Made by a program: the position numbers and the translations under genes. Source: Desulfosudis oleivorans (GTDB lineage Bacteria > Desulfobacterota > Desulfobacteria > Desulfobacterales > SURF-7). Taken from it: a stretch of 64,000 nt of DNA. The notes under the pieces are model-generated. The model ran no database searches. It was not told the origin of the DNA and was given only the letters and a program-made list of their open reading frames with translations. Each line of letters opens with the position of its first letter. Within the stretch, counting starts at the first letter, position 1. Shown here piece by piece: positions 3,537-64,000 of the stretch. The stretch lies in NCBI GenBank assembly GCA_020723325.1, contig DYJD01000011.1, forward strand, positions 139,373 through 203,372, read 5' to 3'.

Positions 3537-3599
3537 GTTACGCCTCCTTTATTTTAAATTTTTTGAATAAAATTGTTGAAAAGATATACTTGTTGCCAA

Positions 3600-3780: not shown

Positions 3781-3816
3781 GCCTGTCGCGGCTGGAAGCC
3801 GCTCCCACAATCGGGG
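3781..3816. repeat. REP-like palindrome in an otherwise gene-poor gap
   Basis: The sequence CTGTCGCGGCTGGAAGCC, followed by GCTCCCACA, has the look of the 'GTGGGAGCGGCTTCCAGCCGCGA' class of short extragenic palindromes seen in many proteobacteria. A GCGGCT/AGCCGC inner stem is visible. Only one copy was seen in this window. The surrounding stretch 3537-3839 holds the PEP-CTERM promoter and no convincing gene. Confidence 0.45.
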
Positions 3817-3839
3817 ATGGCCGAATCAACGATCAAGGC

Positions 3840-5096
3840 CTATTTTGCTGAATCGCTATCATGAAAAAATCGATAAGTGGGCAGTTGACCGGACACTCTG
3901 CTGGTTAGCTCGTTGATAATGGATTGCAGCCAATCCTGCCCCATGACCGCTTCTTCCGGCTGTAAATTTTGAATAACGTCGATATATTTTCGGCCATATA
4001 ATTGAATACCGGCATTGATTCGCTCAGAAAAGGGCTCCAGCAATGAGGCAGTCGGGGTTACAGAACAAGATTCTTGTATGATTTCTTTTATATGCGGCCA
4101 GTTTTCAACAAAGGCCTTTTGTTGTAATAGCAAAGCTGAGGTATTATCCGTTTTCCTCAAAATCCCAATGGAATCAAAGACCTTTTGAGTCAAACCGTCC
4201 AAGCGTTTGACGCGCTCCTCCAAACCCAAGTCAAGCACGGAAATCAATCCATTCAACAATTCCAACGGAAATTGTTCAGAAATAAAGCGTGAACGAATTT
4301 GGCGGTACCATTGTTTTAAAGCAATCAGATTGGCCACGTAAACGATATTGCTGACCACAATGCGTTGAATCGCCTGGTAAACGCCGCTGGTAAAAGCAAT
4401 GCTGCCGCCTCTGCCGGTGCCTCCGAAAATCAGCCGCCCTGGTTGAAACTCATCCTTGCGTACGATGGTGCCGGCAGCGGTTACTGTACCAAAGGCCAAT
4501 CGACAGGGTCCGACAACCCCCCCCTGCCCCCCCAAAAAAATAGGCGGCTGGTTCAGCATGACGCCTCCGGGCACGTCTCCAAACAGGGAGGGCGTGGCTT
4601 TATCCTGGTTGGGTGTGAAATTGAAATGGATAAAAGAACTGCCGACTTCGCTGTGGTTGTGTCGTCCGGTGCCTCCGGCCATGAGGCAATCACAAAAATT
4701 GATCAAACTTCCCAAGGTGACAAATGGAAACAATATGGTCTGCTTCAGTCCCACAGTATGGGCAATGCTGGCTTCCTCTTCCATTATGGTGCCTTCGCGG
4801 ACCTGGGCACCGAATCCGGCCGCAGCCTTTTCCAAAAAAACCGATTTCCGGAAACACCCCCCTTTGAGTTCCACTTTAGGACCCAGCATGCAATCATCGA
4901 TTGTAACAGGTCCATCATGGCCTAATTTCACATGGTCAAGAATCAGGGTTGATTTTCCCAGCAGTCTGCATCCGGGGAAAATGACGGTGCCTTTTCCTGA
5001 AATTCGATCCAGATCAATGGAGTCATCCAGATAAACCGAAGAAGGATTGGGAATACGAACTCCCTTTTGTATCAGCTTTGTAATTTTTTCATTCAT
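3840..5096 (-). CDS. Left-handed beta-helix protein, GlmU C-terminal-like, function unknown
   Basis: The 418-residue protein has an N-terminal and central hexapeptide-repeat region (for example GKGTVIFPGCRLLGKSTLILDHVKLG), typical of left-handed beta-helix acyl- and nucleotidyl-transferases. A conserved central block, GTGRHNHSEVGSSFIHFNF with PGGVMLNQPPIFLGGQGGVVG, resembles the GlmU-type active region. It lacks the N-terminal nucleotidyltransferase (no LAAGxGTRM), so it cannot be a bifunctional GlmU. The C-terminal 170 residues are helical and unlike acetyltransferases I know. Such proteins are often annotated as UDP-GlcNAc pyrophosphorylase-related. Activity is unproven; a sugar-nucleotide or scaffold role is possible. 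It is divergent from pgi, with about 280 bases between the starts that probably contain both promoters. Confidence 0.75.
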   Translation of the reverse strand: MNEKITKLIQKGVRIPNPSSVYLDDSIDLDRISGKGTVIFPGCRLLGKSTLILDHVKLGHDGPVTIDDCMLGPKVELKGGCFRKSVFLEKAAAGFGAQVREGTIMEEEASIAHTVGLKQTILFPFVTLGSLINFCDCLMAGGTGRHNHSEVGSSFIHFNFTPNQDKATPSLFGDVPGGVMLNQPPIFLGGQGGVVGPCRLAFGTVTAAGTIVRKDEFQPGRLIFGGTGRGGSIAFTSGVYQAIQRIVVSNIVYVANLIALKQWYRQIRSRFISEQFPLELLNGLISVLDLGLEERVKRLDGLTQKVFDSIGILRKTDNTSALLLQQKAFVENWPHIKEIIQESCSVTPTASLLEPFSERINAGIQLYGRKYIDVIQNLQPEEAVMGQDWLQSIINELTSRVSGQLPTYRFFHDSDSAK

Positions 5097-5377
5097 TTTT
5101 TGCCCGTTGTCTTGAGCCGGTTTCAGTATTGGCGGAATCTTTTACTGATACGGTTTTGATTGTCAAGGAATTCTTCAATGAAAAGCGATTGAAAATAGGA
5201 CGAGGTGAAACCATTTGATTAAGGCCTGATTTTTATTGAATTGAGAATCAAAAAAAGATAACATAATGCTGGAATTGGTAATTGGGCCTTCAGCAGTCCT
5301 TTATTTTTCAAACCACTTTTCCCTACTCTGAAGAAACCGGAGATGCATCTCAAGAAAACATTATCATGGAGGATTAT

Positions 5378-48100: not shown

Positions 48101-48618
48101 CCAGCCTTGCGGATGACTTTGTGATTGCCCACCAGAACACCACCGTCACGGTGCAAAGCCTGTATCAAACCGCGGCGCCCCTCGGGAACGTGCGCGTGTA
48201 CCTGTTCACCCAGGGCGGGGCCTACCAGAATATTTACCAGAATACTGATGCCCAGGGCCGGGTGGTGTTCAGCCTGCCCCAGAAAGCCTATAAGGTCCGG
48301 GCCGACTATCTCGGGTACCAGTTCTGGTCCGACCCGTTCACCTGGACAGATCAGACCGTTTCAATCCCCCACGGCCTGGCCAAGGTCCATGCCCTTCGCT
48401 CGGGTGTGGACCAGCCCGGCGCCCGGGTCTATCTGTTCACCGGCGCCGGGTCCTATCAGAGCCGCTACGTGGACACCAATGCCGCCGGCCTGGCTGAGTT
48501 CCTGATTCCCAACCAGGCCTTCAAGTTCCGGGTGGACCACAGTGGTAAGCAAGTGTGGAGCGGGGTGGTCACTGTTACGCCGGGGGGGGAGAATGTTGTT
48601 GAGGTGGAGTTAAATTAG
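42127..48618 (+). CDS. Very large secreted repeat protein (2163 residues)
   Basis: A signal peptide (MNRPHFKSILMLISFLLLGL, ending near AWAA) starts the protein. Residues 30 to about 540 are beta-rich, with CARDB/cadherin-like parts. A calcium-binding type segment follows at about 546-590 (DSDGDGLPDSW, DFDGDGISDLDEFLNGTDP). Ig/FnIII-like domains extend to 1020 (DADGDPITYEFQV, DADGDALTYEFEL). Then 14 tandem units of about 80 residues follow, each ending like YKxRADYLGYQFWS and containing VYLFxxxGAYxxxxxTDxxG, similar to carboxypeptidase-regulatory-like or transthyretin-like sandwiches. No membrane span, LPXTG or PEP-CTERM end is present, so secretion or loose surface attachment is likely. GGAAAG precedes the ATG. 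Adhesin or structural function is inferred; no enzyme domain is visible. Confidence 0.88.
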   Translation: MNRPHFKSILMLISFLLLGLVPVQAWAAESLCAEVKIEIKQELSLERQAFDAHMRINNGLSNISLDHVKIVVNFMDENNNPVTASFDPNADPSTTRFFIRVDSMENITDVDGQGVVSPSTSADIHWLIIPTQGAAGGQIQGKLYYVGATLTYQLGGEENVTQVTPDYIYVKPLPDLALDYFMPEDVYGDDAFTDAIEPPVPYALGLRVKNIGQGIARNVKIESAQPKIIENKQGLLVGFVIESSEANGKIAPASLLAALGDIAPESAGTARWIMTTTLSGRFTNFTASVAHANELGGDLTSLIKTENLKPHTLVRDVLTDLPGRDGIRDFLAKDGSLFKLYESSGVDTQVVDFSGDSSLTPAGASGTTTNFTLTTTANAGFSYICLSDPHAGSRILKGAVRSDGKLIKPENAWLSKTRKADPAAGWNYFVNLFDAQGTSSYTLTFDDPGNLPQAPVLGYIADHAGVEGQQLGFLVEASDPNGTVPKLTAEALPAGATLTDSGNGSAVFDWTPNSGQAGTYTITFKASDGVLSSTRRAVVSIHSLGDSDGDGLPDSWEMAHFGTLDRDGTGDFDGDGISDLDEFLNGTDPERADHAPSVPLIISPAAGAEVDTLLPQLTVENSTDADGDPITYEFQVFSDESLAEPVAVQTGIAAGNNQTSWTVTVALADNTTYIFRVRACDQASRSLWAYGRFMVNTANDTPSVPLPCDPAQGRMVDTLTPVLTAMAAGDADNDSLAYTFEIYDSADMANLLTTGPGMLTDAGRRVVFAVTDAVLADQATYYWKVFVSDEHGLENASDIMAFTVNLADHAPTAPGIILPAPGSEVTALSVDITVTNSLDADGDALTYEFELDTQADFNSPAKRVSGPLPAGDVETMFAVTGLSDNTRYYLRVRADDGLAPGPFSFSSFFVNTVNNLPATPVVKNPDELAWTTTLAPTLGVGPAKDVDEDELTYHFEIYDDADLTQLIQAGDAADPEWVVPQALTVNTRYYFRGKARDEHGLASPWSPVASFFVSEEAAPASLAVQVKTGKGVELQGLNVYAFTQAGAYTGIHAQTDAGGKAAFDPAAFNAGAYKFRADYLGRQFWTTVATLPGTALINLVIPTETVTLAVTTAAGPAENVHVYVFSPTGSYLALFADTDDQGHVSFELPAGSGYNFRADLLGNQYWSNVQQVVAGTANAFAVNSGGGELAVYVGENATTALPGLRVYLFHQNESYLNLNSVTDDQGRAAFDVPAGTYKVRADYLGYQFFSAETSVTADTSANLLIPHADLVGTVTGEFQGESTPLAGLNVYLFNKDSAYQNRHFITDGEGRVTLHLPAKAYKIRADYLGRQFMSEEFTQTDVNVAIPMADVNVRVGWNTAAIPGVSVYAFSAAGAYLSLHGTTDAAGEVQFRLPSAGIYRFRADYQAGQFWSGDTSLLPGEVKAVDISTGGGAFAFSVQKGPGEPIPGVNCHVFSETGAYFGVHGPTSSDGEVTFDLADNIYNIRVDYLGYQFWSYNHDVPEVLSGLLTIPHQDTAITVSGSFNGTVTPIAGVPVYLFTKEGAYQNRSLTTDGNGRVTFNLPTQEYKVRTDYLGRQFWSGAFQQQDTAVAIPMADAEILVTFAGQPVAGVPVYAFTATHSYLNLHATTNAEGKVLFRLPAAGVYDFRADYQGSQFWSGEAGLTADQLNPVEINTGGGLFTFTVLKAENMPLTGATCYVFNEQGAYLNLNAVTSSEGQVSFGLADGRYKIRVDHLGYQYMSPVMQIPGSLSGTFTIPHADVTVSVNSLYQGVLEPMAGLKVYLFTQAGAYQNVNKTTDAAGQAAFNLPPGQYRLRVDYLSQQFWSAYFSQTNVTVDIPMAEAAVTVSGAGQPLGNVPVYAFTGSRAYLNLTQTTAADGKALFRLPAAGVYDFRADYQGSQYWADDAALAANQVNIVPISTGGGVFQLTLFKEPGLALAGIRCYVFNAAGSYLGLSGTSDAQGRVSFNLADGTYKFRVDYLGYQFWTGLHTVPTSLADDFVIAHQNTTVTVQSLYQTAAPLGNVRVYLFTQGGAYQNIYQNTDAQGRVVFSLPQKAYKVRADYLGYQFWSDPFTWTDQTVSIPHGLAKVHALRSGVDQPGARVYLFTGAGSYQSRYVDTNAAGLAEFLIPNQAFKFRVDHSGKQVWSGVVTVTPGGENVVEVELN
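45187..48615 (+). repeat. Fourteen tandem protein-coding repeats with a three-unit super-repeat
   Basis: Units are recognisable by the core (R)(A/V)DYxGxQFW. From the third unit they cycle through three types that differ in their ends: ...IPMAD, ...TGGG and ...IPHxD. The cycle is seen three full times plus remnants, so the array grew by duplication of about 250-residue blocks. Confidence 0.8.
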
Positions 48619-49875: not shown

Positions 49876-50049
49876 TGTCTGATTGGTTTAATTAGTTTGA
49901 TTAGTTTAATTAGTTGGTTAAGGAGATAATCGAGTTGAATTCTATATTTTCAATACAGCGATTGATGAAAATGAAAACCACAAAAACCAATCCAACCAAT
50001 AAAACTAATTCAACCAATTCAACCAATGAAACTAATAGAACCAATTTAG
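49876..50049. repeat. 9-bp-period minisatellite, forward and reverse arrays
   Basis: A forward array (GATTGGTTTAATTAGTTTGA) covers about 49876-49918 and a reverse array (AACCAATAAAACTAATTC) about 49980-50049, with 60 bases between. The gap includes TAAGGAG and a TTG at 49935 in frame with the giant gene. The arrays fill the space before the giant gene. Confidence 0.8.
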
Positions 50050-50066
50050 CAAATATAGAGGCTTTT

Positions 50067-53000
50067 ATGAAAGCGATCCGTTGCTCAAATGACAATTCTG
50101 CTAAAAATCAGAACATATCTTTCAGGGCCATGCTCCGCATCGCTTTTATCTTGCTTCTCTTCCTATATCCGCTGGCAAGCAGTGCCTTGGCCGACCCAGT
50201 GGTGATCTCCACCAACACGACCATTTCCGCAACCAACACAAGTTTTGACAATCAGGACATTACTGTCAGTGGATGCACCTTAACTATTGATGGCGCACAC
50301 CAATTCCAAAGCCTTTCAATTATAAACGGCGGCAAAATCACCCATATCGCCAACTCCACCACTCAGACTAATATTTTGGATCTTAATATCACAAACGATG
50401 TCACGATTGATACGGGCGCGTCCATTGATGCCAGTGGTTGCGGATTTACCACCGATCAGGGACCTGGCAAAGGGTCTGCAACTTTTTACGGTGGCGGAGG
50501 AGGAGGACATGGCGGTAATGGTGGTTATTGTTATAATAACTATAGCGCTACAGGAATAAGTCCTGGCGGCGTAGAATATGATTCCATAACGAATCCATCA
50601 CAAATCGGTAGTGGAGGCGGTTATGGTAGGAGTGGTGGTCGCTTAGGTGGAAATGGTGGCGGCGGTATCAGATTGAATGTCGGAGGGCGGCTTGAAAACA
50701 GAGGGAAAATCCTATCAAATGGCAATAATGGCGTTGGCTCTTTTGATATGTCTTCTGGTGGTGGTTCGGGTGGTTTTATCTATTTAACTGTTGGAGATTT
50801 TGCTGGCGTCGGGGAAATTAGCGCCAACGGTGGAATTGGAGGATCTCCGAGTTCGGGTGGAGGTGGTGCCGGCGGCAGAATAGCCATTTTTTACAATACA
50901 AAGACATATACAGGCGCTACTACAGCATATGGTGGTACGGGCTATCAAAACGGTTCTGCCGGCAGTATTTATTTGAAATCCAAAATCTCCACTGAAGGGC
51001 AGATCATATTTGACAACAGTGTAAACACGGTTGCTTCTACAAGTATCGTAGGGGATTTTCCAGATATCCTTATTCGTAATTCTGTAGTCATTGTAGCCGG
51101 TAACGTAACCGCAATTAGTTGCACTGTATCGAATAATGCCGTCTTGACTCACTCTCAGAACACTGATGTTCAGACCAATATAATTGACATGGCGGTTTCA
51201 GGGAATATGACTGTAGAAAGTAGCGGGCTGATCAATGCCAGCGGGCTCGGCTTTCTCCGCGATCAAGGTAACGGCAAAGGACTTTCAGGTTATTATGGCG
51301 GCGGCGGTGGTGCCCATGGCGGCAATGGTGGCAATGGTACCAGCAATACCGGAGGTGTAAGTTACGATTCCGTAACCGATCCATCCCAGATCGGCAGCGG
51401 TGGTGGTTCTGGCAGTAATGGCGACCGCTTAGGTGGAAATGGCGGTGGTGGTATCAGATTGAGTGTCAGCGGACGGCTTGAAAACAACGGCATAATAAGA
51501 GCAAATGGTAACAATGGAGTTGGTGGTGGTTCTGTATATTGTGGTGGGGGCGGTGCTGGTGGTTTTATTAATTTGACAGTTGGTGAGCTTACAGGTGTCG
51601 GCTCTATCAGCGCTAATGGCGGCATTGGCGGCATTACAGGTTCGAACGGCGGCGGCGGCGGAGCCGGCGGTAGAATAGCCATCTATTATAATAGTAAGTC
51701 ATATACAGGCACTGTTACAACTTATGGCGGTACAGGCTATCAGAATGGCGCTAGCGGCAGTGTATATATAAAGTCCAATGCTGATGCAAATGGCGAGGTT
51801 ATTTACGATAATAATCAAAACTATGGTGCTTATACGTATATTTCTGGGACCCTGCCGAATATAACCATACGCAATAAAACCATGGTTGTCGCTACCGGAA
51901 CAATAACAGCAACCAGTTGTATAGTATCAAACAACAGCATTTTAACTCACGGGATAAACAGCAACAATCAGGAATATATTGTTGACATGGTAGTTTCGGG
52001 TAATTTTATCATAGAAACCGGCGGCCTGATTGATGCCAATAGTCGGGGCTATACCAGTGGTCAAGGTTCTGGCAAAGGAGGTTCAGGCTACTATGGCGGC
52101 GGCGGTGGTGCCCATGGCGGCAATGGTGGCAATGGTACCAGCAATACCGGAGGTGTAAGTTACGATTCCGTAACCGATCCATCCCAGATCGGCAGCGGTG
52201 GTGGTTCTGGCAGTAATGGCGACCGCTTAGGTGGAAATGGCGGTGGTGGTATCAGATTGAGTGTCAGCGGACGGCTTGAAAACAACGGCATAATAAGAGC
52301 AAATGGTAACAATGGAGTTGGTGGTGGTTCTGTATATTGTGGTGGGGGCGGTGCTGGTGGTTTTATTAATTTGACAGTTGGTGAGCTTACAGGTGTCGGC
52401 TCTATCAGCGCTAATGGCGGCATTGGTGGCATTACAGGTTCGAGCGGTGGCGGCGGTGGCGCTGGCGGTCGCATCGCTATTTATTACCATTCAGCCCATC
52501 CAGCATCTACCTTCAACATGGCTAACGTTGCGGTTGTAAGCGGCACTGGTTATCAAAACGGCCAACCAGGCACCATCTACATCCCGGAAGTGGCCACCCC
52601 GGTCATCACCACCAACAACGGCCAGGATTTTTCCACCGGCAACATAGCCCTGACCCTTACCGGCACCTGTCTTGCCGATGCGGCGGTGATCCTGGTGAAC
52701 GGCTCGGCCGACGGCGTGACCCATGGCCCGGGAACCACCTCCTGGAGTTATTCGACGAATCTTACGGAAGGCGCCAACACCTTTTCCGTAGTCGCCCAAA
52801 ACGGCATGGGCCTGCAGAGCGGGGCCGCTGTCATCACGGTGACCTTGAATTCCACTCCGCCGGGTGCGCCGGTGATCACCACCAATTCCGGCGGGGATTT
52901 CACGGTTCAGACCGCCCAGGTCCAGCTCCAGGGCACCTGCACGGCGGACAGCAACGCCATTCTGGTGAATGGCTCGGCCGAAGGTGTCACATACACGCCC

Positions 53001-56000
53001 GGCGCTACCACCTGGTCCTATAGCGGCGAGCTTGCCGTGGGCGCCAACTTCTTCTCGGTCATGGCCATGAACGCCGCCGGCCAGCAAAGCCCGGCCGACA
53101 CCATCACCGTGACCTTTGCCAACACCGTCCCGGATCAGCCGGCCAACGTGAGCCCGGCCGACGGGGCCGTGAATGTCAACCAGCCGGTCCTGCTCACCGC
53201 CTCGGCCTATTCCGATGCGGAGGGCGATGTCCATGCCGCCGGCCAGTGGCAGGTGCGGGCACAGAACGGCACCTTTGACACGCCGGTGTTCAACCTGGTT
53301 TCCGGCGCCGGCCTGATCCAGGCCACGGTGCCGGTGGGCACCCTCAACTGGTCCGCCACTTATTATTTCCATGTGCGCTACAAGGACAGCCGCGGCTCCT
53401 GGTCAGCCTGGTCCAACGAGACCAGCTTTACCACCACGGCGGATAATCTCGCGCCTGAAAATGTCGCCAATCTGCGGGTGACCGCTTCCCAGGAAAACGC
53501 CCTGGTCCTCACTTGGAATCATTCAGTCGACAGCGCCGGGGACCTGGCTTCCTATAAAATTTATCGCGACGGCAATGCCGTGACCACCATTGCCAAGGAG
53601 CAAAACACCCACACCCTTGACGGGCTTGCCCCGGCCACGGGTTATGTTGTGAAAGTCACCAGCCTGGACCAGAGCGGCAATGAAAGCAGCGGCGCAACCA
53701 TCAATGCCGCCACCCTGCTGAACAACCCGGTGAATGTCCAAGCCCATACCGGCGCCACCCGGGTCAGCCTGAGCTGGGATCCGGCCTCTCCGGCCGGCCT
53801 GGTCAAACAATACAATGTCTATATAGGTGCAAGCCCCTTCGCCGGCATCGCGGGGCTCACGCCGGTGGCCACCGTAACCGGTACCGCGGCGGACATCACC
53901 GGCCTGACCGCTAATCAGGACTATTATTTTGCCGTGGCGACGGTGAACATCTCGGACGGTGTAAAGACCGCGGTCACATCCATTCAGGCCACCCCCGTAA
54001 GCCGGCTGACGGCCCATTACACCATGGACGGCATGGTGGGCGATCAGATCTATGATGAAACCGGCGTGCACACCGCCACGGTGTACGGTTCGGCCATGAT
54101 CGTGCCGGGCTATGAGGGCAACGCCCTGGATCTCAACGGCGTGGACGACTGGTTGGGCGTGGATTCCCTCTCCCTTGACCTGAAGACCGGGGATAACATC
54201 ACCCTGACCTGCTGGTTCAAGACCACGGCCGCCAAGACCAATGACACCAGCAACATCCTGTTCGCCTCCAATAACGACGCCCAGGGCGATCTGTTCCGCC
54301 TGGGCACGGGCAACAGCGGCGGCATTTATCATGCCGTGGGCGCCTCCGGCGGCGAATACGGCACAGGCTTCAACAACGGCGCCTGGCATTACCTGGCCCT
54401 GGTCCAGTCCGGGAGCGGCGCCTACAAGATCTATGTGGACAATCAACTGATCCGCTCCGCCACTGCCACGGCAGCGGCCTGGTCCAACGCCGTGTTCCAC
54501 AGCATCGGCCAGGAATGGGACACTACTGGCCCCAGCGACTTCTTTGACGGCCGGATCGATGATTTTAGGATTTACAACTACGCCCTCACCGAGGCCGAGA
54601 TTGCGGCCCTGTATGTGGACAACCTGCCGCCGGAACTGTCCTCGGCCGTGCCGGCGGACGGCAGCCTGGTGAATCTGGTGAACGACATCCGCCTCACCCT
54701 GCTGGACCGCCAGGGCGCCATTGACACGGTGGCCACCGCCGCCACCATGGTGGTCACCAACCATCAGGCCCAGACCCTGACCGGCAGCGTCACGGTCTCC
54801 GGCAGCACGTTTATTTTTACCCCGGATGCGGCGCCCCTTGCGGACGGCATTTACCAGATTGCGTTGACCGCCTTTGACATGGAAGGCAACAGCCAGGCCT
54901 ATGCCATTGCCTTTACCGTGGACAGTGAGGTGCCGAACGCGCCCACCATTACCGGCGGCACGGTGACCTCCGGCCTGATCCAAGTCGCACCGGTGATCAA
55001 CCGTTCCAGCAGCAAAACCGTAACCCTCACCGGCACCCGCGAGGCCGATACTTCCATCTGGATCAACGGGGTCCAAAAGACCGCCGTGGGCTCGGGCGAC
55101 TGGTCCGTGGCCCTCACCCTTACGGAAGGCGAAAACAGCCTTTCCGTTTCCATGCAAGACCAGGCCGGCAATGAAAGCGCGGCCGTGACGGTCATCATTC
55201 AGGTGGATTCCATTGCGCCCGCCGTGAGCGACATGACCCCGGCCCATAACAGCTACATCAATTTCGGCCCGGCCGATATCATCCTCAACCTGGCAGAAAC
55301 CGGCTCCGGCCTGGATCTGCCAGGCTCCACCCTTGCCGTGCGCGACAACAGCCTGGCCTTTGTGCCCGGCGACTGGCAGCTCACCGGCAGCCAGCTAGTG
55401 TTCACGCCCCAGGTGCTCCTGGGGGATTCGGTCTATACCGTCACCCTCCAGCTCAAGGACCTGACCGGCAATCAGACCGGTCTGCTCCAGTACCAGTTTA
55501 CCCTGGACCGGGTGGCGCCGGCCGCGCCGGTTATCAACCCTGTGACCAGCCCGACCTACAACCCCGGCCAGACCGTGTCCGGCACCCGCGAAGCCTATAG
55601 TGCCATCCTCTTGAACGGCACGGAGGTTCTGGGCAATGTGTCCGGCACCAGCTTCCAGCATACCATTACCCTGGCTTCCGGCACCAACACCTTGAATTTC
55701 ACGGCCCGGGACCGGGCCGGCAACCTGAGCCAGCCGGCCACGGTCACCATTGTCTATGATGACGTAGCGCCCCTGGCCGTCACCAATCTGACCATCAATC
55801 CCAACGGCGATGGCACCCGCGTGACCCTGAGCTGGGCCGGCTACAACGAGGCCGAGCACGGCGACATTGCCGCCTATCGCATTTATCGTTCCACCACCGG
55901 CTTTGCCAGGATCGACGACGCCGGCGTGAGCCAGACCGGCTCGGTCAATGCCGGCACCTTCACCTATGCCGCCACTGGTCTTAGCCGCAACACGGCCTAT

Positions 56001-59000
56001 TATTTTGCCGTGGTGCCCGTGGACCAGACCGGCAATTTCATTTACGAGGTCACGGCTGTTGCCGCCACACCCATGGACACCCAGGCTCCGGACGAGGTGC
56101 GCAACCTCACGGTGACCGCCTATGCGGACCGCCTGGTCTTCAACTGGCAGCCCGCTTTGGCAACAGACCTTGCCGGATATAAACTCTATTTTGACAACGC
56201 GACCCAGCCCGGCGCAACCCTTACTGCTGATGTGCTCACCTATGAACGTACCGGCCTGGCCCCCGCCACCGCCTATCCGTTCAAGATCAAGGCCACGGAC
56301 GGCGCCAATGATTCTGCCGGGGTCAGCCTCACCGGCTACACCTTCTTGAACAACCCCACGGGTCTTACGGCCACGCCTTTCAGCGGCAAGGTGACCCTGG
56401 CCTGGAACGCCAGCGATCCTGCGGCTTACGTCAAGCATTACGCGGTTTACGTGAGCACCACGGATTTTAACGGCAGCGTGGAAGGCCGCAATCCGGCCCT
56501 GACCACCACCGGCCTCTCCACCCAGGTGGCGGGCCTCACCAACAACACGCCCTATTTCTTTGCGGTCACGGCCGTGAACCTGTCCAACGGCGAGAAAAAG
56601 GAAGTCACAAGCATCACCGCCACCCCGGTGGCCGACAGCCAGGGACCCGCCATTGTCAACCCCCTGGCCGGGACCACGCCCTTGACCGAGGGCCTGACCC
56701 TGACCAAGTCCCTGACCCTGTCCCTCACGGCCGATGATCCCGCCGGCATCAGCCGGGCCGAATTTCTGATCGACGGAGCCCTGGTGCGCACGGATTACAC
56801 CGGCCCCAACTATAGCTTTGACCTGGATCTTTTCAGCCTCAGCGACGGCAACCATACCATTTCCATTGCCGTGTACGACACCCTGGGGAACAAGACTCTT
56901 TCCGTATACAATATCACCGTGGCCCTGGCCCTGCCGGCCGCGCCGGTGATCACCCAACCCGCCACCGGCATCACCGTGAACCAGGCGGCATGTCCCGTGA
57001 AGGGTTCAGCCGAAAAGCAGACCACGGTTCAACTGTACCTGAACGACGCGGCGGTGGGCAGCCCCCTGGCTGTGGATTCTCAAGGCAATTTCGCCGGCAG
57101 CCTGACACTTGTGGAAGGCCTGAACAAGCTCGAAGCCGCGGCCGTCAACCGCACCGGCATTGGTCCCAAGTCCGCGGCGGTGAATGTCACCCTGAACACG
57201 GCCGTGCCCCTGGCCCCGGCCGGCCTCTCGGCCGAGACCCGCGCCGGCGGCACCATCCGCCTGTCCTGGCCGGCTTCCGCCGGCTCGGGAGTGAGCGGCT
57301 ATAATCTCTACCGCGCCGGTCAGCCCTTTACCACCACGGCCGGCGGGCTCAAGATGAACACCGGCCTGATCACCGCCACCCAGACCGACAACCTGCCGCC
57401 CGCGGACGGCACCTATTACTACCGGGTCACGGCCGTGAACGCAGCCCAGAACGAAAGCGAGCTGTCCAATCAGGCCACCGGGGTCTCGGACCGACTGGGA
57501 CCCAAGGCGGTTGCCATTGTCTACACGCCCCAGGGCCGGGTGGGGGCTGACGGCACCATGGCCCCCGGCCGGGTGAACCTGCTGCTCACGGTGAGTGAGG
57601 CCCTCCAGGCCCTGCCGTTCCTGTCCGTGACCCCGGAAGGCGGCACGCCCATTGCCATTGAACTGACCAAGGAAGACGACCTGACCTACAGCGGCTTCTT
57701 CACCATCACGGAAAACACCCCCACGGCCACGGCCTGGGCCGTGTTCTCCGGCCGGGATCTTTACGGCAACCGCGGCACGGATATTCTTTCCGGCAACAGC
57801 ATCAAAATCGACACGGACGGCCCGGCCGTCTCCCGTCTGGTGGTCCAGCCCCAGGCGCCTATCAAGAACAATGCGGCCGGCCCGGTGGCGGTCCAGATGA
57901 CCCTGGGCCTGAATGAAAAAGTCAAAACCGGCACCAATCCCACCCTGGGCTATGTCCTGCCCAGCCAGGGCAGTGAACCCATTTCCATCAGCAGCCTGAA
58001 CAAAATCGACACAGCCCCGGGGGATGCCGAGACCTGGCAGGCGGTCTTTACCCTGCCGGCCAATGCCGGTCAGGCCGGTCCGGAGACCTTGAGCTTCCGC
58101 TACACCGGCCAGGATGAGCTGGACAATATCAGCCATGAAATCCTGGCGGCGAACCAGTTCCAGGTCTACCAGGGCAATCTGCCGCCCTTGGCGGCCCCCA
58201 CCGGTTTAACCGCCGAGGCCTTGCCCGGCGGCCAGGTGATGCTGTCCTGGAAGGCCGTAACCAATGCCGTGGGCTATCAGATTTATCGCAAAGCCCCGGG
58301 TGAAAGCGAGCTTGGTTCCCACGCCCGGGTCAACTCCGGCCTGGAATTTACCGAAACCGTCGCTGAAGACGGTGTCTATACCTATGCCGTGGCCAGCATC
58401 CGCAGCGTGAACAGCGAGGAGTCCGAGAGCGGTCTGTCCACTCCCGTGACCGTCACCACCGACGCCACGGCCCCGGCCGCGCCCACCAATCTCATGCTGG
58501 ACTTGATCCCCCAGGGCATCCGCGCCCAGTGGACCGCCACGGTTTCTGCCGAGCCCGTGACCTACGCCTTCTATCGCGCCCCCGGCGAGACCACGCCCGT
58601 GGCCGACGCCACTTTGATCCAGGAAGGGTTCAGCCAGACCTCCTGGATTGATTTCCATCCGGATAATGCCCAGCACTGGTATTTCATCACCGCCGTGGAT
58701 GCCACCGGCAACGAGTCCGCGCCCTGCGCGCCCCAGTATCTGGACTTTGCCCTGCTGCCGGTCGCAAGCATCACCGTGACCCAGCAGGATTTAAGCCTGC
58801 CGGTAATCACTTGGACCCATCCGTCCGCCGCGAATATCGACGGCTACAATCTCTATCTGGGTCCGGTGTCCCAGGGCGTCAAGCTGAACAGCAACCTTCT
58901 GACCACCACCACCTATACGGACGTGGGCTACAGCGGCGACACCCGCGCCTACACCCTCACGGCCGTGAATGATAATCAGGACAGCCTGGCCCGCACCCTG

Positions 59001-62000
59001 ACCCTGCCCAAGATCAAGGCGGTGCTGCCGGCAACGGCCCGCATCAAGCGCGGTATCATGAACCGCCTGGAATACCAGGTGACCAACAGCTCCGAGGCGG
59101 AAGTAACCGGCATCACCCTCAAGACGGCCCTGAACAACCGCACCCATCTGTCCGCGACTTTCAGCCTGGCCCCCGGCGAGAGCCGGGTTGTGCCCGTGGT
59201 GGTGGCCGGTTACAGCGAGCTGCCGGATGTGACCCCGCTCACCACCACCATGGAGATCAGCCCCAATACCGGCGAGACCGTCCGCATCATCCGTTCCGGC
59301 GAGATCGAGGTCATGGACGGCTCCCTGATCCTGCAGCTCTTCAACGAGGAGTTCACCCGCGGCGCCATGGGCAAGGTGGGCTTCACCCTGCAGAACACCG
59401 GCGACGAGGAGATCGAGATCGTCACAGCCCGGAATTCCGGCTCCCAGCCCTCGGACCAGGTGACCTTCACCCTGCTGGACAAGGACAACAACGTCATTGC
59501 CACCCAGCCATTCAAGCAGGCTGTGGGCGACATGCTGGTGGGTCTGGTGAACGCCAACACCGTGGCCCGCATCCCGGCCGGCGCAACCTTCACGTCGGCC
59601 CTGTTCGAAATGCCCATTCCAGCCACGGCGCCGGACCAGGTCACCGTGCGTCTCAACATCAGCACCATTTACCATCACCAGGGCCGCACGGACCAGATCT
59701 CCATGACCGGCCTATCCACAACCCATCAGGTGTCCCTGGTCGACACCTCCTATTTCGGCGAGATCACCGCCGTGACCCCGGCCCTGTCCAAGGGCGACCA
59801 GGATATCACCATCCTTGGCCGGGCCGTGGAACGCGGCACCAACAATCCCCTTGGCAGCGTCAAACTCAAGCTGGTGATCACAGTCCAGGGTTTTGAGCGT
59901 ACCTATGAAGTCTATACGGATACCAACGGATTGTTCAGCTATACCTTCACGCCCCTTTCCGGCGAGGCCGGGGTCTATACCGTGCGCGCCGTGCATCCGG
60001 ATTTGACCGACAAGCCCGTGCAAGGCACGTTCACCATCGGCCGCACCACCTACAGTCCGGCCCTGATCAACCTGAGTCTGTCGCGTAATTACCAGAAGAC
60101 CATCAACATCAGCCTGAGCACCAGCGCGGGCAACGCCCTTGAGACCGCCCGGCTGGTCTTTGAACCCGAGGATCAGCCCGGCGCGGTCCTGCCCCAGGGC
60201 GTGAACATCACCCTGGGCACACCCCAGAATGTGCCCTCCTCCGGCTCCGTGAACTTGCCGTTCACCATTTGGGCCGATAACAGCGCGGCCAATACCGCTG
60301 TATTTTATTTAAAGGTTCTGAGCGGCGAAACACCCACCATCCACGGCTGCGTGCGTATCAATGCCCAGTTCCTGGAAGCCAAGCCGGTATTGTCATTCAC
60401 CCCCAATCATATTGAAACCGGCGTGTCCTGGGACAACACCGTGGTGGAAAGCGAGACCCTTACCAACACCGGCGTGGCTGACATGAACGACGTGCGCGTG
60501 GTCCTGCTCAGCCAGAACGGCAGTCCGGCCCCGGCCTGGGTGTATTTGAACTCCGCCGCGGACCAGGGCACCATCGCCGTGGGTGAAAGCAAGAAGATCG
60601 ACATCGCCTTCTCGCCCGTGGAGGGCACCACACCCGAAGGCATCTACACGTTCCTGTTGCGCGTGATCAGCAGCAACCATCCCACCCGCGACATTTACGT
60701 GGTCGCCACCGTGACCCAGTCCGGCCGGGGCAAAGCCCTGTTCCATCTTTCGGATATCTATACCGGCACCCTGGACGCCAACAGTGATCCCATCCCAGGC
60801 CTGAGCGGTGCCAAGATCCGACTCCAAAACGAACTGGTGCCCACCGACATATTCAACGGCGGCCCCAGCAATACAGATGGTGAAATCGAGTTCCTCGATT
60901 TGCCTGCCGGCAGATACCAGTACCGCGTGACAGCCGCCAACCATTCTGAGCAGACTGGGCGTATTTGGATCAAACCGGCCGTGACCACCACCCAGGAGGT
61001 GTTCCTGGACTACAACCTCGTCACCGTGGAATGGTCGGTGAACGAAATCACCATCCAGGACAAGTACGAGATCACGCTGAATACGACTTTTCAAACAGAC
61101 GTACCCGCAGCAGTAGTCATTGCGCAACCGTCCGCCACCGTTCTACCTAAAATGAAGGCCGGGGATGTGCTCAACACCGAGATCAACCTCACCAACCATG
61201 GGCTGATCAAGGCCGATCATCTTAAGTTCACATTGCCGACCGATGACGAGCATTTCAAATTCGAAATGCTGGGAGGTTTGCCGGACAGCCTTTTTGCCAA
61301 GCAAGTCATTACCGTCCCGATACGAGTTACTTGTTTATCGCCGCTTGAGCCGGAAACGGAAACCGGCGGCGGGTGCGTGAATTATGTCCGTTGCGGATAT
61401 TTGGTTTATGATTTCATCTGCTCCAATAAGAGACAGAGCGTATCCAAAACGGACTATTGCGTGACATATACATCCTGTAGCCACGAACATACGGGTGGCG
61501 GCCAAGGTGGCGGAAGCGGCACCATCAACGTGAGCGGAGGTGGTAGTGGTGGTACAGGTTCCTTTTTGGACAATCCAGCGCAAGAGTCTACGCCGGTAAG
61601 CGGCTCTAAATGTTATCCTGAACAGAAGTCGGATGTGGATGATATCAAATGCGAGCCTTGTAGAAATAAAGCAACCAAACAAGATCAAACGCAAGAAACC
61701 AAATCGGAAGTTCATACGCGTCTGCGCAAATATCAACGCGATGACAGGGATCTATCTGTAAAGGTTCCGGGAGGGCTTGCTGAAATTAACCGTTATTATC
61801 GCGATGGTCGGTGGTACATGGGATTTACAGATTATGCTGATAGGTCCTGGCCACTCTTTGCCGGCTATATGGGCGCCGACTTCCATAGGAAACTCCTTAC
61901 GATTCCGTGTCGGGATGAAAAGCTACTCTCGGAAGCAGTTACCATTGAAGGGGTTATTTACGGCAATTTGATGGTATTCTCAAGCGACATTGCGCTTGTA

Positions 62001-64000
62001 AGCAAATATGATCCTGATGGCAGGTTGATTGATCAATGGTATGACTGCATTGTGGAAGGCAGATCGATTAATTATTTTTATAGGGGGTATAACGTCGAAG
62101 AAACGACTGACGGAATGGCTCGTTGGGTATCGCCAAGCGGCTTATGGCGAAAATTTGAAAGCTTCAACGAAGGCCGTAGTGGTCGCCTTAAGGCGTACGG
62201 TGATAAAAACGGAACCATCGCCCAATTCGATTACGATGATGCCACCGGCAGACTGCTCCGAATGACCGATTCTTCCGGTGAGCCGATTGTCTGGTTCGAA
62301 TATAATGCGGATAATCTCATATCGGCCTTTTACGACAGTGCCGGCCGACGGGTTGAGTACACCTATACCAACGGCCATCTGACGAATGTCAAGGATGTTA
62401 ACGGGAACAATACTTCTTATACGTATGATGACAAAGGCCGGCTGATCCGCACCACAAATCCGGAGGGCGGAGAAAGCAATATCACCTATGATAAGGAGGA
62501 CGGGATTCAATCTGTTTTGGATCAGAACGGGAAAGGCCATTTATTTGATTTTAATTATGACAAGTATAAAAAGCAATTGTATGCCCGGGTTCGCACCACA
62601 TCCGGCATGATCAAGGAGACCTGGTACAATAAGGATGGCGATACGAATAGAGTGGATTTGAACGGTCGTACGATCAAGAAAATCAATAAAGACAATCGTA
62701 TTCTGTATTTAACCGACGAAAACGGTTTTGTAACCCGAGAAGAATTTGATGAATGGGAAAATAAGACAAAGACGGTTTACCCAGACGGCTCGATGATTAA
62801 AAAGGAATACGAGCATAAATACAACCAACCTGTATCGAGTGTGGATGAAAATGGCGTCCTGACACGTTTTGAATACGATGAAAAAGGCAACCTTATTCGA
62901 AAAAGAGAGGCGATCGGTACAGATAATGAGCGCATCACTGAATACACCTATAGTACGAACGGCAATGTTTTAACGATCACGCAATTGGGCGATGCTGACA
63001 CACCGGCAGCCCTCACCCAAATGACCTATGACAGTGCCGGTAATATTTCAACAATTACCGACGCGGAAGGCAACTTGACCCAATTTACAAGTTATGACAA
63101 TATGGGCAACGTCCTGACCAAGATCGACCCGCGCGGCAAGGAATGGTCCTATACTTATGATGCCGCGGGTCACATGCTGACCGCCACCGATCCTTTGCTC
63201 AATATCACGAGATTCTTCTATGACAAGGTGGGCAATAAAGTTCATGAGATCGACGCGGAAGGCAGGGAAAAATTCTTTGAATACGACGACAGCAACAACC
63301 TGGTCAAAGCCATCGATGCCGATGGGAAGATTACCTTGTTCGAATACAACACGGACAACAAGTTAATTAAACAGACCGACCCCACCGGCAGGATCATAGA
63401 GTATCATTACGATAATGAGGGCCATCTGGTGCAAACCACCGACGGCAACAATAATCAGATCTATATGCAATACAAAACCGGGGCATCCGGTTGTTCCTCC
63501 TGCTCGGGCGGCACCGGCAGCGGCAGCCAGCTCGCCAAAACCATCTTCCCGACCTACGAGCAGGCCTATGCCTATGACCGCCGCGGCCGCAGGACAGCGG
63601 AGAGCGACATCATGGGTTCTACCATTTTGACCACCCATTTTGCCTATGATCCGGTCGGCAACCTGACCCAAAAGATCGACAAGGAGGGCAATCTCACCGG
63701 CTACGACTATGACGAGCTGAGACGCCTGACCAAGGTAGCCAATGCAACCGATGATGGAACCAATGAAACCATCTATACTTACGATGATCGTGACAACCTG
63801 ATTGCTCTTGAGGATGCGAAACACCAGATTACAAGGTTCGAATACGACCGAAACAATCGCCTTACCAAGGAAATCCGGCCCCTCAACCAGGCCACGACTT
63901 ATCATTACGATACGGCCGGGAATCTTGACTGGAAACTAGACGCCAAGAATCAGAAGACCGAATACGTTTACAACGACGCGGGCCAGCTCACGGACATCAA
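50067..64000 (+). CDS. Giant secreted protein with Gly-rich, LamG, FnIII/Ig and YD/RHS regions, 3' end outside window
   Basis: One uninterrupted frame of 4644 codons runs from the ATG at 50067 to the window edge. Signal peptide: a hydrophobic core (AFILLLFLYPLASSALA) ends near residue 42. Residues 45-808 hold three Gly-rich beta modules (YGGGGGAHGGNGG, GGRIAIYY). Ig-like domains follow to about 1310, a LamG/concanavalin-like domain at about 1313-1517 (AHYTMDGMVGD, FDGRIDDFRIYNYALT), then many FnIII/Ig-like domains to about 3680, a Cys-rich linker, and from about 3895 YD repeats (YDDKGRLIRTTNPEGG, YDAAGHMLTATDP). GAGG lies 6 bases before the ATG. Such architecture fits RHS/polymorphic-toxin or adhesin proteins; any C-terminal toxin domain is not visible. 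Long minus-strand open frames here are composition artefacts. Confidence 0.9.
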   Translation, partial: MKAIRCSNDNSAKNQNISFRAMLRIAFILLLFLYPLASSALADPVVISTNTTISATNTSFDNQDITVSGCTLTIDGAHQFQSLSIINGGKITHIANSTTQTNILDLNITNDVTIDTGASIDASGCGFTTDQGPGKGSATFYGGGGGGHGGNGGYCYNNYSATGISPGGVEYDSITNPSQIGSGGGYGRSGGRLGGNGGGGIRLNVGGRLENRGKILSNGNNGVGSFDMSSGGGSGGFIYLTVGDFAGVGEISANGGIGGSPSSGGGGAGGRIAIFYNTKTYTGATTAYGGTGYQNGSAGSIYLKSKISTEGQIIFDNSVNTVASTSIVGDFPDILIRNSVVIVAGNVTAISCTVSNNAVLTHSQNTDVQTNIIDMAVSGNMTVESSGLINASGLGFLRDQGNGKGLSGYYGGGGGAHGGNGGNGTSNTGGVSYDSVTDPSQIGSGGGSGSNGDRLGGNGGGGIRLSVSGRLENNGIIRANGNNGVGGGSVYCGGGGAGGFINLTVGELTGVGSISANGGIGGITGSNGGGGGAGGRIAIYYNSKSYTGTVTTYGGTGYQNGASGSVYIKSNADANGEVIYDNNQNYGAYTYISGTLPNITIRNKTMVVATGTITATSCIVSNNSILTHGINSNNQEYIVDMVVSGNFIIETGGLIDANSRGYTSGQGSGKGGSGYYGGGGGAHGGNGGNGTSNTGGVSYDSVTDPSQIGSGGGSGSNGDRLGGNGGGGIRLSVSGRLENNGIIRANGNNGVGGGSVYCGGGGAGGFINLTVGELTGVGSISANGGIGGITGSSGGGGGAGGRIAIYYHSAHPASTFNMANVAVVSGTGYQNGQPGTIYIPEVATPVITTNNGQDFSTGNIALTLTGTCLADAAVILVNGSADGVTHGPGTTSWSYSTNLTEGANTFSVVAQNGMGLQSGAAVITVTLNSTPPGAPVITTNSGGDFTVQTAQVQLQGTCTADSNAILVNGSAEGVTYTPGATTWSYSGELAVGANFFSVMAMNAAGQQSPADTITVTFANTVPDQPANVSPADGAVNVNQPVLLTASAYSDAEGDVHAAGQWQVRAQNGTFDTPVFNLVSGAGLIQATVPVGTLNWSATYYFHVRYKDSRGSWSAWSNETSFTTTADNLAPENVANLRVTASQENALVLTWNHSVDSAGDLASYKIYRDGNAVTTIAKEQNTHTLDGLAPATGYVVKVTSLDQSGNESSGATINAATLLNNPVNVQAHTGATRVSLSWDPASPAGLVKQYNVYIGASPFAGIAGLTPVATVTGTAADITGLTANQDYYFAVATVNISDGVKTAVTSIQATPVSRLTAHYTMDGMVGDQIYDETGVHTATVYGSAMIVPGYEGNALDLNGVDDWLGVDSLSLDLKTGDNITLTCWFKTTAAKTNDTSNILFASNNDAQGDLFRLGTGNSGGIYHAVGASGGEYGTGFNNGAWHYLALVQSGSGAYKIYVDNQLIRSATATAAAWSNAVFHSIGQEWDTTGPSDFFDGRIDDFRIYNYALTEAEIAALYVDNLPPELSSAVPADGSLVNLVNDIRLTLLDRQGAIDTVATAATMVVTNHQAQTLTGSVTVSGSTFIFTPDAAPLADGIYQIALTAFDMEGNSQAYAIAFTVDSEVPNAPTITGGTVTSGLIQVAPVINRSSSKTVTLTGTREADTSIWINGVQKTAVGSGDWSVALTLTEGENSLSVSMQDQAGNESAAVTVIIQVDSIAPAVSDMTPAHNSYINFGPADIILNLAETGSGLDLPGSTLAVRDNSLAFVPGDWQLTGSQLVFTPQVLLGDSVYTVTLQLKDLTGNQTGLLQYQFTLDRVAPAAPVINPVTSPTYNPGQTVSGTREAYSAILLNGTEVLGNVSGTSFQHTITLASGTNTLNFTARDRAGNLSQPATVTIVYDDVAPLAVTNLTINPNGDGTRVTLSWAGYNEAEHGDIAAYRIYRSTTGFARIDDAGVSQTGSVNAGTFTYAATGLSRNTAYYFAVVPVDQTGNFIYEVTAVAATPMDTQAPDEVRNLTVTAYADRLVFNWQPALATDLAGYKLYFDNATQPGATLTADVLTYERTGLAPATAYPFKIKATDGANDSAGVSLTGYTFLNNPTGLTATPFSGKVTLAWNASDPAAYVKHYAVYVSTTDFNGSVEGRNPALTTTGLSTQVAGLTNNTPYFFAVTAVNLSNGEKKEVTSITATPVADSQGPAIVNPLAGTTPLTEGLTLTKSLTLSLTADDPAGISRAEFLIDGALVRTDYTGPNYSFDLDLFSLSDGNHTISIAVYDTLGNKTLSVYNITVALALPAAPVITQPATGITVNQAACPVKGSAEKQTTVQLYLNDAAVGSPLAVDSQGNFAGSLTLVEGLNKLEAAAVNRTGIGPKSAAVNVTLNTAVPLAPAGLSAETRAGGTIRLSWPASAGSGVSGYNLYRAGQPFTTTAGGLKMNTGLITATQTDNLPPADGTYYYRVTAVNAAQNESELSNQATGVSDRLGPKAVAIVYTPQGRVGADGTMAPGRVNLLLTVSEALQALPFLSVTPEGGTPIAIELTKEDDLTYSGFFTITENTPTATAWAVFSGRDLYGNRGTDILSGNSIKIDTDGPAVSRLVVQPQAPIKNNAAGPVAVQMTLGLNEKVKTGTNPTLGYVLPSQGSEPISISSLNKIDTAPGDAETWQAVFTLPANAGQAGPETLSFRYTGQDELDNISHEILAANQFQVYQGNLPPLAAPTGLTAEALPGGQVMLSWKAVTNAVGYQIYRKAPGESELGSHARVNSGLEFTETVAEDGVYTYAVASIRSVNSEESESGLSTPVTVTTDATAPAAPTNLMLDLIPQGIRAQWTATVSAEPVTYAFYRAPGETTPVADATLIQEGFSQTSWIDFHPDNAQHWYFITAVDATGNESAPCAPQYLDFALLPVASITVTQQDLSLPVITWTHPSAANIDGYNLYLGPVSQGVKLNSNLLTTTTYTDVGYSGDTRAYTLTAVNDNQDSLARTLTLPKIKAVLPATARIKRGIMNRLEYQVTNSSEAEVTGITLKTALNNRTHLSATFSLAPGESRVVPVVVAGYSELPDVTPLTTTMEISPNTGETVRIIRSGEIEVMDGSLILQLFNEEFTRGAMGKVGFTLQNTGDEEIEIVTARNSGSQPSDQVTFTLLDKDNNVIATQPFKQAVGDMLVGLVNANTVARIPAGATFTSALFEMPIPATAPDQVTVRLNISTIYHHQGRTDQISMTGLSTTHQVSLVDTSYFGEITAVTPALSKGDQDITILGRAVERGTNNPLGSVKLKLVITVQGFERTYEVYTDTNGLFSYTFTPLSGEAGVYTVRAVHPDLTDKPVQGTFTIGRTTYSPALINLSLSRNYQKTINISLSTSAGNALETARLVFEPEDQPGAVLPQGVNITLGTPQNVPSSGSVNLPFTIWADNSAANTAVFYLKVLSGETPTIHGCVRINAQFLEAKPVLSFTPNHIETGVSWDNTVVESETLTNTGVADMNDVRVVLLSQNGSPAPAWVYLNSAADQGTIAVGESKKIDIAFSPVEGTTPEGIYTFLLRVISSNHPTRDIYVVATVTQSGRGKALFHLSDIYTGTLDANSDPIPGLSGAKIRLQNELVPTDIFNGGPSNTDGEIEFLDLPAGRYQYRVTAANHSEQTGRIWIKPAVTTTQEVFLDYNLVTVEWSVNEITIQDKYEITLNTTFQTDVPAAVVIAQPSATVLPKMKAGDVLNTEINLTNHGLIKADHLKFTLPTDDEHFKFEMLGGLPDSLFAKQVITVPIRVTCLSPLEPETETGGGCVNYVRCGYLVYDFICSNKRQSVSKTDYCVTYTSCSHEHTGGGQGGGSGTINVSGGGSGGTGSFLDNPAQESTPVSGSKCYPEQKSDVDDIKCEPCRNKATKQDQTQETKSEVHTRLRKYQRDDRDLSVKVPGGLAEINRYYRDGRWYMGFTDYADRSWPLFAGYMGADFHRKLLTIPCRDEKLLSEAVTIEGVIYGNLMVFSSDIALVSKYDPDGRLIDQWYDCIVEGRSINYFYRGYNVEETTDGMARWVSPSGLWRKFESFNEGRSGRLKAYGDKNGTIAQFDYDDATGRLLRMTDSSGEPIVWFEYNADNLISAFYDSAGRRVEYTYTNGHLTNVKDVNGNNTSYTYDDKGRLIRTTNPEGGESNITYDKEDGIQSVLDQNGKGHLFDFNYDKYKKQLYARVRTTSGMIKETWYNKDGDTNRVDLNGRTIKKINKDNRILYLTDENGFVTREEFDEWENKTKTVYPDGSMIKKEYEHKYNQPVSSVDENGVLTRFEYDEKGNLIRKREAIGTDNERITEYTYSTNGNVLTITQLGDADTPAALTQMTYDSAGNISTITDAEGNLTQFTSYDNMGNVLTKIDPRGKEWSYTYDAAGHMLTATDPLLNITRFFYDKVGNKVHEIDAEGREKFFEYDDSNNLVKAIDADGKITLFEYNTDNKLIKQTDPTGRIIEYHYDNEGHLVQTTDGNNNQIYMQYKTGASGCSSCSGGTGSGSQLAKTIFPTYEQAYAYDRRGRRTAESDIMGSTILTTHFAYDPVGNLTQKIDKEGNLTGYDYDELRRLTKVANATDDGTNETIYTYDDRDNLIALEDAKHQITRFEYDRNNRLTKEIRPLNQATTYHYDTAGNLDWKLDAKNQKTEYVYNDAGQLTDI
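51294..51628 (+). repeat. Direct repeat copy 1 inside the giant gene
   Basis: This 335-base segment, encoding the second Gly-rich module, reads base for base like 52092-52426, an offset of 798 bases (266 codons). Identity falls off quickly on both sides, so the event was recent duplication or gene conversion. Confidence 0.85.
52092..52426 (+). repeat. Direct repeat copy 2 inside the giant gene
   Basis: Second copy of the 335-base segment, in the third Gly-rich module. The first module (about 50460-50900) is a diverged relative at protein level. Confidence 0.85.

What the first reader, a model, noticed from the sequence alone, without database searches (positions are those of the whole stretch)
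50067..64000. Giant secreted protein of more than 4600 residues ending in YD/RHS repeats
It combines Gly-rich modules, a LamG-like lectin domain, dozens of FnIII/Ig domains and YD repeats. The 3' end is outside the window and may carry a polymorphic toxin domain or an adhesin core. It is the largest gene here and has no obvious secretion partner nearby.
Basis: partly seen in the sequence, partly recalled or inferred. Interest (0 to 1): 0.68.

Follow-up and report, generated by a model that had tools for sequence, protein, structure and literature searches.

The report
Giant Rhs toxin with peptidase tip
This 5,200-residue protein is the full-length member of a family of exported bacterial weapon proteins whose last ~140 residues are swapped between relatives; here the tip is a zinc enzyme of the kind phages use to cut bacterial cell walls, built like the signalling part of animal Hedgehog, and a candidate protective gene follows it.

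Summary
The YD repeats close in a standard Rhs core (PSIFLDPWGL, residues 5121-5130), followed by a 140-residue tip and a 255-aa gene with a signal-peptide-like start. In relatives of the same order, and in displaced copies in the same genome, the Rhs body is conserved up to residue ~5130 and similarity then drops to background: a polymorphic toxin, not a plain adhesin. The tip is an M15-type zinc peptidase of the Hedgehog/DD-peptidase kind: H-x6-D, Glu and HxH are present, relatives are phage endolysin-like genes and LysM/lysozyme proteins, and the fold (modelled on a 48%-identical relative) is nearest to Hedgehog-N. Best explanation: a Sec-exported surface toxin that delivers a peptidoglycan peptidase to neighbours, with an exported immunity protein. 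The genome has type II secretion marker genes and no type VI sheath gene. A second Rhs-M15 tip occurs in a Nitrospinota MAG beside an Rhs-M23 tip. Toxicity, immunity and the outer-membrane export route are inferred. New variant of a known kind.

The parts
49914..64000 (+). Giant secreted Rhs protein. The frame continues past the window to window-equivalent 65726 (5,270 aa; 5,219 from ATG 50067; 5,198 from ATG 50130). Beyond the window, on the same contig: variable tip at equivalent 65304-65723 (C89:204676-205095, residues 5131-5270, M15/Hedgehog-type zinc peptidase with H5175, H5181, D5188, E5219, H5229, H5231); candidate immunity gene at equivalent 65764-66531 (L010:2137-2904, 255 aa); ~62-bp dispersed repeat at equivalent ~66532-66596
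50130..50195 (+). Signal-peptide-like segment (residues 73-94, MLRIAFILLLFLYPLASSALAD)
   Evidence: sequence; no SignalP available
50196..52583 (+). Head: three Gly-rich modules (residues ~95-890); other family members carry NosD-type beta-helix heads instead
   Evidence: (low-confidence model)
52584..61493 (+). Stalk: fn3 / bacterial Ig and related domains (residues ~891-3860), conserved at 42-54% over up to 3,700 aa (stalk plus part of the cage) in relatives
54153..54605 (+). Laminin_G_3 / concanavalin-A-like lectin domain (residues 1414-1564)
   Evidence: E 1.8e-19
61611..64000 (+). Pre-RHS region and RHS/YD-repeat cage (residues ~3900-5130; ends beyond the window at equivalent 65303 with core PSIFLDPWGL)

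Best explanation
A full-length polymorphic Rhs toxin. It enters the Sec pathway by its N-terminal signal, crosses the outer membrane by an unidentified route (type II secretion is the best candidate) and is presented at the surface by its head and its fn3/Ig/lectin stalk. The YD repeats form a closed cage around the tip. Two conserved Asp residues of the core (D5103, D5126) are expected to cut the chain after DPWGL and free the 140-residue tip. The tip is a zinc peptidase of the M15/Hedgehog-DD-peptidase kind that would cut the peptide stems of peptidoglycan in the periplasm of a neighbouring cell. The next gene, a 255-aa protein with an export-signal-like start, would protect the producer in its own periplasm. 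Shown by sequence: architecture, core, tip polymorphism, peptidase family, catalytic residues. Inferred: export, cleavage, delivery, peptidoglycan as substrate, toxicity, immunity.
For: RHS core and conserved autoprotease Asp pair, aligned with solved cages 8h8a/8h8b, 7q97 and 8qja. Tip polymorphism: identity to nine relatives or paralogs is 25-95% per 20-residue block up to 5129, then mostly 0-25%; different tips in G009, G003, G569, G500 (phospholipase A2, PF06951 E 8.9e-11) and in C49 of the same genome. Tip family: relatives are ~100-aa phage and microvirus proteins; one passes Peptidase_M15_3 (PF08291, 26.9 bits against cut-off 23.2). The closest relatives sit on lysozyme/LysM/PG-binding proteins. 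H-x6-D, Glu and HxH are conserved across 33 relatives. A model of a 48%-identical relative (pLDDT 90) matches Hedgehog-N (Z 11.0) and M15 endolysins/DD-peptidases (Z 5.6-7.2). An independent Rhs-DPWGL-M15 fusion exists in a Nitrospinota MAG (L026), followed by an exported-looking gene and then by an Rhs-M23 tip. No VipB in the 99.5% complete genome; GspG present twice.
Against: The tip itself has no Pfam or NCBIfam hit; its M15 assignment is by homologs. Immunity function rests on position and export signal only: no homolog in 395 genomes of the phylum and no similarity to the L026 candidate. No functional data. The signal peptide was judged by eye. The outer-membrane step is not identified.
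Confidence: 0.75

Rival explanations
1. The tip is not a toxin for neighbours but a self-directed cell-wall peptidase that opens the producer's own peptidoglycan so that the giant protein can be assembled at or released from the surface.
For: A 5,200-residue protein must pass the wall; M15 homologs occur on plasmid proteins annotated TraG and beside phage lysis-type genes, where cutting the wall serves passage.
Against: Relatives with the same body carry unrelated tips, including phospholipase A2, so a wall peptidase is not needed for export; the tip sits after the Rhs core, inside the predicted cage; a new gene with an export-signal-like start follows it.
Confidence: 0.1
2. A plain giant adhesin whose Rhs end has picked up a decayed phage peptidase; no antibacterial role.
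For: Large fn3/Ig/LamG stalk; several displaced or broken Rhs fragments in this genome.
Confidence: 0.07
3. A polymorphic Rhs toxin aimed at a protein or glycan other than bacterial peptidoglycan, for example of protist predators; Hedgehog-type folds need not act on peptidoglycan.
For: Best structural neighbours are Hedgehog-N domains; the stalk carries a lectin-like domain.
Against: Sequence neighbours of the tip are phage lysis-type genes and lysozyme/LysM proteins; the sister Rhs tip in L026 is an M23 peptidase, another peptidoglycan enzyme family.
Confidence: 0.08

Closest known systems
Sec/T2SS-exported classical polymorphic toxins with RHS repeats (PMC3482391)
   Same: Signal peptide, adhesion domains such as laminin-G near the N-terminus, RHS repeats, variable C-terminal toxin, adjacent immunity gene
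   Different: Much longer Ig/fn3 stalk (~3,000 residues), exchangeable heads, and an M15 tip that a text search of the held part of that catalogue did not find
T6SS Rhs effectors (RhsP 8h8a, Rhs 7q97, Tse15 8uy4, Tse5 8cp6)
   Same: YD-repeat cage, core motif and Asp pair for C-terminal self-cleavage
   Different: Signal peptide instead of a PAAR/clade domain; genome has no VipB sheath gene
Bacterial teneurin-like proteins (9pt5/9ifo; PMC13018210)
   Same: Exported Rhs cage with polymorphic C-terminal toxin; sequence similarity over the cage, E 1.8e-31
   Different: Stalk and head differ; teneurin-specific superfold parts not tested; the tip here is a peptidase
Hedgehog/DD-peptidase family (M15A, BacHh; PMC6027127, PMC8052667) and Microviridae/phage M15_3 peptidases (PMC3394797)
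   Same: H-x6-D and HxH zinc motif, catalytic Glu, fold
   Different: Here the domain is the tip of an Rhs protein; Hedgehog-type calcium site not established
M15 T6SS effectors: Tpe14 with LysM + M15_3 (PMC6833914), WHIX effectors with M15-like domain (PMC12135965)
   Same: M15 peptidase predicted as antibacterial effector
   Different: Those are not Rhs proteins and use a T6SS

Membership tests
Polymorphic Rhs toxin | RHS/YD repeats with Rhs-associated core (PxxxxDPxG, TIGR03696) | tested here: met
   TIGR03696 64.4 bits against cut-off 32.5; PSIFLDPWGL
Polymorphic Rhs toxin | C-terminal domain varies between otherwise conserved relatives, boundary at the core | tested here: met
   conserved to ~5130, then mostly 0-25% identity in nine relatives or paralogs
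Polymorphic Rhs toxin | Conserved Asp pair for C-terminal self-cleavage | tested here: met
   D5103 and D5126 align with the two Asp positions of 8h8a; cleavage itself not tested
Polymorphic Rhs toxin | Cognate immunity gene directly downstream | tested here: inconclusive
   a 255-aa gene 38 nt downstream, N-terminal hydrophobic segment, no known family, no homolog found
Polymorphic Rhs toxin | Toxicity of the tip | not testable with these tools
   needs expression
T6SS Rhs effector | T6SS machinery in the genome | tested here: not met
   no VipB (PF05943) in a 99.5% complete genome; the control rings in E. coli
T6SS Rhs effector | N-terminal PAAR or VgrG/Hcp link | tested here: not met
   no such domain in the protein
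Sec/T2SS-exported RHS toxin | N-terminal signal peptide | tested here: inconclusive
   MLRIAFILLLFLYPLASSALA by inspection; no predictor available
Sec/T2SS-exported RHS toxin | T2SS present in the genome | tested here: met
   two GspG (PF08334) genes; use by this protein not tested
M15 / Hedgehog-DD-peptidase (tip) | H-x6-D and HxH zinc motif with catalytic Glu | tested here: met
   H5181, D5188, E5219, H5229, H5231
M15 / Hedgehog-DD-peptidase (tip) | Passes a curated family model | tested here: inconclusive
   tip itself no hit; homolog L013 passes PF08291 (26.9 against 23.2 bits)
M15 / Hedgehog-DD-peptidase (tip) | LAS/M15 fold | tested here: met
   model of a 48%-identical relative, Hedgehog-N Z 11.0 over 104 residues; the tip itself was not modelled
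BacHh (calcium-binding Hedgehog-like) | Hedgehog-type calcium ligands | tested here: inconclusive
   the alignment covers the region only in part; calcium ligands not clearly conserved
Teneurin-like protein | Teneurin superfold parts outside the YD shell | not tested
   only the cage was compared

The most novel reading that the evidence does not exclude
Hedgehog-N-type peptidases are a recurrent class of Rhs toxin tip. With the HINT domain and SuFu, which PMC3482391 traces to polymorphic toxin systems, the signalling half of animal Hedgehog would then also descend from, or share a toxin reservoir with, tips of this sort.
Probability: 0.1. Interest if true: 0.85.

Novelty: new variant of a known kind. 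Interest (0 to 1): 0.55.

Why it matters
It adds a peptidase class of phage-lysis and Hedgehog type to the known Rhs tips, in a family of roughly 3,500-5,200-residue, signal-peptide-bearing Rhs proteins whose pre-Rhs region was found in 25 of 194 genomes of the order. The family varies at both ends (head and tip) around a conserved stalk and cage, which makes it a clean system to ask how an Rhs toxin without a type VI machine leaves the cell and enters a neighbour.

Tried and rejected
Direct Pfam, NCBIfam, PHROGs and PDB sequence searches with the tip alone gave nothing significant; homologs were needed as intermediates. Single-sequence scans of genome contigs and viral contigs with the tip found nothing; the alignment query did. 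T6SS delivery rejected. The PADLOC hit to JetB for the tip (E 0.0097) is a chance-level match. The 3' repeat was considered as an integron attC site or structured RNA: no Rfam match, DNA folding no better than shuffles, and by inspection no attC-type ends; rejected as either. Immunity homologs were sought in the phylum and in viral contigs, none found. The Gly-rich module model is low confidence (pLDDT 51) and was not used. A profile search of 395 genomes of the phylum found no second Rhs-M15 fusion there.

Full report
OBSERVATION. The finding is real. One frame covers 49914-64000 and is open at the window's end. The window is G000:C89:139373-203372 and the frame is 5,270 aa, stopping at window-equivalent 65726. 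A third start, ATG 50130, gives the cleanest signal peptide.

ANATOMY. Head: three Gly-rich modules, residues ~95-890, 58-79% identical to one another, weakly like the AgmC N-terminal model. Stalk: fn3, Big_13, Big_5, Big_6, Big_7, Glucodextran_B and one Laminin_G_3. Cage: RHS repeats, RHS protein and Rhs_assc_core. Relatives of the cage with solved structures are T6SS Rhs effectors and bacterial teneurin-like proteins. The core PSIFLDPWGL aligns with the core of 8h8a, 8h8b, 7q97 and 8qja, and both Asp positions implicated in C-terminal self-cleavage are kept (D5103, D5126). The residue after D5103 is Ile, not the usual Pro.

TIP. Residues 5131-5270 match no curated model directly, but they have clear relatives: 96-99-aa prophage-like proteins in an order relative, near a small membrane protein gene; hypothetical proteins of Microviridae; and 17 genome and 47 viral loci found by an alignment query. 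L013 passes Peptidase_M15_3. Roux et al. 2012 (PMC3394797) describe M15_3 peptidases in Microviridae and link them to holin/endolysin genes. The closest relatives of the tip, L017-L021, share its extra segment before DHIHxEYD; L019, L020 and L021 are proteins with phage lysozyme, LysM, PG_binding_1, GH19-like or Hydrolase_2 domains. H-x6-D, the Glu and HxH are invariant or nearly so in 33 relatives.

FOLD. A model of the L017 domain (48% identical to the tip; pLDDT 90) matches Hedgehog-N best: Foldseek E 1.6e-4, VIA Z 11.0, 2.3 A over 104 residues. Then come VldE, LysECD7, ChiX, Zn DD-peptidase 1lbu, MepA, Ply500 and T5 endolysin at Z 5.6-7.2. Profile searches agree. In BFVD the best matches are a Microviridae protein already named 'Sonic hedgehog protein...' and a Salinibacter phage protein. 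Roelink and colleagues (PMC6027127, PMC8052667) group Hedgehog with M15A DD-peptidases by the same H-x6-D and HxH motif. The Hedgehog-type calcium site is not established here, so the tip is called Hedgehog/DD-peptidase-like rather than BacHh.

POLYMORPHISM. In its own genome the Rhs body recurs at C100 (87% aa, runs into a contig end), C90 (87%, fragment) and twice in C49 (81% and 76%) with two unrelated tips. C49 thus looks like an orphan tip array, beside two tyrosine recombinase-like genes (named by inspection). In the order, the pre-Rhs/Rhs region is found in 25 of 194 genomes, the best matches mostly in frames of 3,500-4,500 aa. Comparing C-termini, identity is 25-95% per 20-residue block to residue 5129, then mostly 0-25%. 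Tips include a phospholipase A2 (G500) and several of unknown family; five of the six tips whose downstream sequence is held are followed by a small or exported-looking gene on the same strand. The downstream candidates of L133 (G569) and L138 (G500, C13) lack a strong export signal, while that of the M15 tip has one, as expected if the M15 tip acts in the periplasm; this contrast rests on few cases. Heads vary too: G009 shares the Gly-rich head, whereas G569, G514 and G500 have NosD-type beta-helix heads on the same stalk.

INDEPENDENT CASE. L026, a Nitrospinota groundwater MAG contig, holds a partial Rhs protein ending NFIDPWGL + M15 domain (33% identical to our tip), then a 150-aa gene with a hydrophobic start, then a displaced Rhs end with DPLGL + Peptidase_M23 (PF01551 E 6.5e-20), then a 173-aa gene with a hydrophobic start. 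Two peptidoglycan-peptidase families as Rhs tips, each followed by an exported-looking gene, favours wall-targeting tips. Its M15 domain has Thr-Phe-Thr-Thr where most relatives have Thr-Ser, but keeps the zinc motif.

DELIVERY. No VipB in the genome while the control rings; two GspG genes. Neighbouring window genes are redox, chemotaxis, transglutaminase, rhodanese and a 2,163-aa CarboxypepD_reg protein, with no secretion genes among those scanned. PMC3482391 lists signal-peptide, Sec/T2SS-dependent RHS toxins as a class. For a teneurin-like protein, a tip that is toxic only when given a signal peptide has been shown (PMC13018210). How the tip reaches a neighbour's periplasm is unknown.

IMMUNITY. 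The 255-aa gene begins 38 nt after the stop and has an N-terminal hydrophobic stretch. No family, no homolog in 395 genomes. Its role is inferred from position.

NOVELTY. The kind (polymorphic Rhs toxin, Sec-exported) is known, and M15 peptidases are known or predicted as T6SS effectors outside Rhs (PMC6833914, PMC12135965). In the papers searched I found no Rhs tip of the M15/Hedgehog type; the library is partial, so this is an absence in what was searched only. PMC3482391 holds no M15 toxin in the held text but does trace HINT and SuFu of the Hedgehog pathway to polymorphic toxin systems, which gives the evolutionary hook its interest. It remains speculative: M15 domains are widespread in phages, and a toxin origin of Hedgehog-N was not tested here.

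Noticed in passing
C89:205899-205969 (window-equivalent ~66527-66597, beyond the window); C49:262-325, 828-890, 980-1040; C5:16150-16212; C98 ~127824-127886; C13:243993; C99:86350; C113:43778: A ~62-bp dispersed repeat follows candidate immunity genes or Rhs fragments at four Rhs loci and otherwise lies near toxin-antitoxin or Fic-like genes; absent from the 58 relatives searched. 4 of 7 loci near Rhs is far above chance by a rough estimate (P ~3e-7). It could serve as the 3' homology arm for tip exchange.
   Followed up: partly
C49 (L090 1076-5030, - strand): Orphan Rhs tip array with two unrelated tips and putative immunity genes, beside two tyrosine recombinase-like genes (L090 5662-7702).
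   Followed up: partly
C100 (L089 292-6494): A beta-helix plus repeat-domain protein is followed, in the same frame after one stop codon, by an Rhs body 87% like the giant's that runs into the contig end; broken gene or assembly junction.
   Followed up: no
L026:1-3328: Nitrospinota contig with Rhs-M15 and Rhs-M23 tips in tandem, each followed by an exported-looking small gene.
   Followed up: partly
L136 (G500:C17): Related giant Rhs protein with a phospholipase A2 tip (PF06951/PF09056) followed by an 86-aa hydrophobic protein.
   Followed up: partly
window 49882-50018: Imperfect inverted repeat (34-nt arms, 82% complementary) of simple TTAATTAG/CCAAT-type sequence around the start of the giant gene; may affect its expression.
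   Followed up: no
window 42127-48618: 2,163-aa protein rich in CarboxypepD_reg and Ig-like domains just upstream on the same strand; no Rhs part.
   Followed up: no
plasmid hits H14-H33: The same M15 domain type occurs under genes annotated as TraG N-terminal-domain or LysM proteins on sphingomonad plasmids, suggesting a wall-opening role in conjugation.
   Followed up: no
L082 (C5:8836-15408): Another 2,191-aa Rhs frame in this genome whose tip carries an HESLH (HExxH-type) motif and is followed by a 176-aa frame and the dispersed repeat.
   Followed up: no
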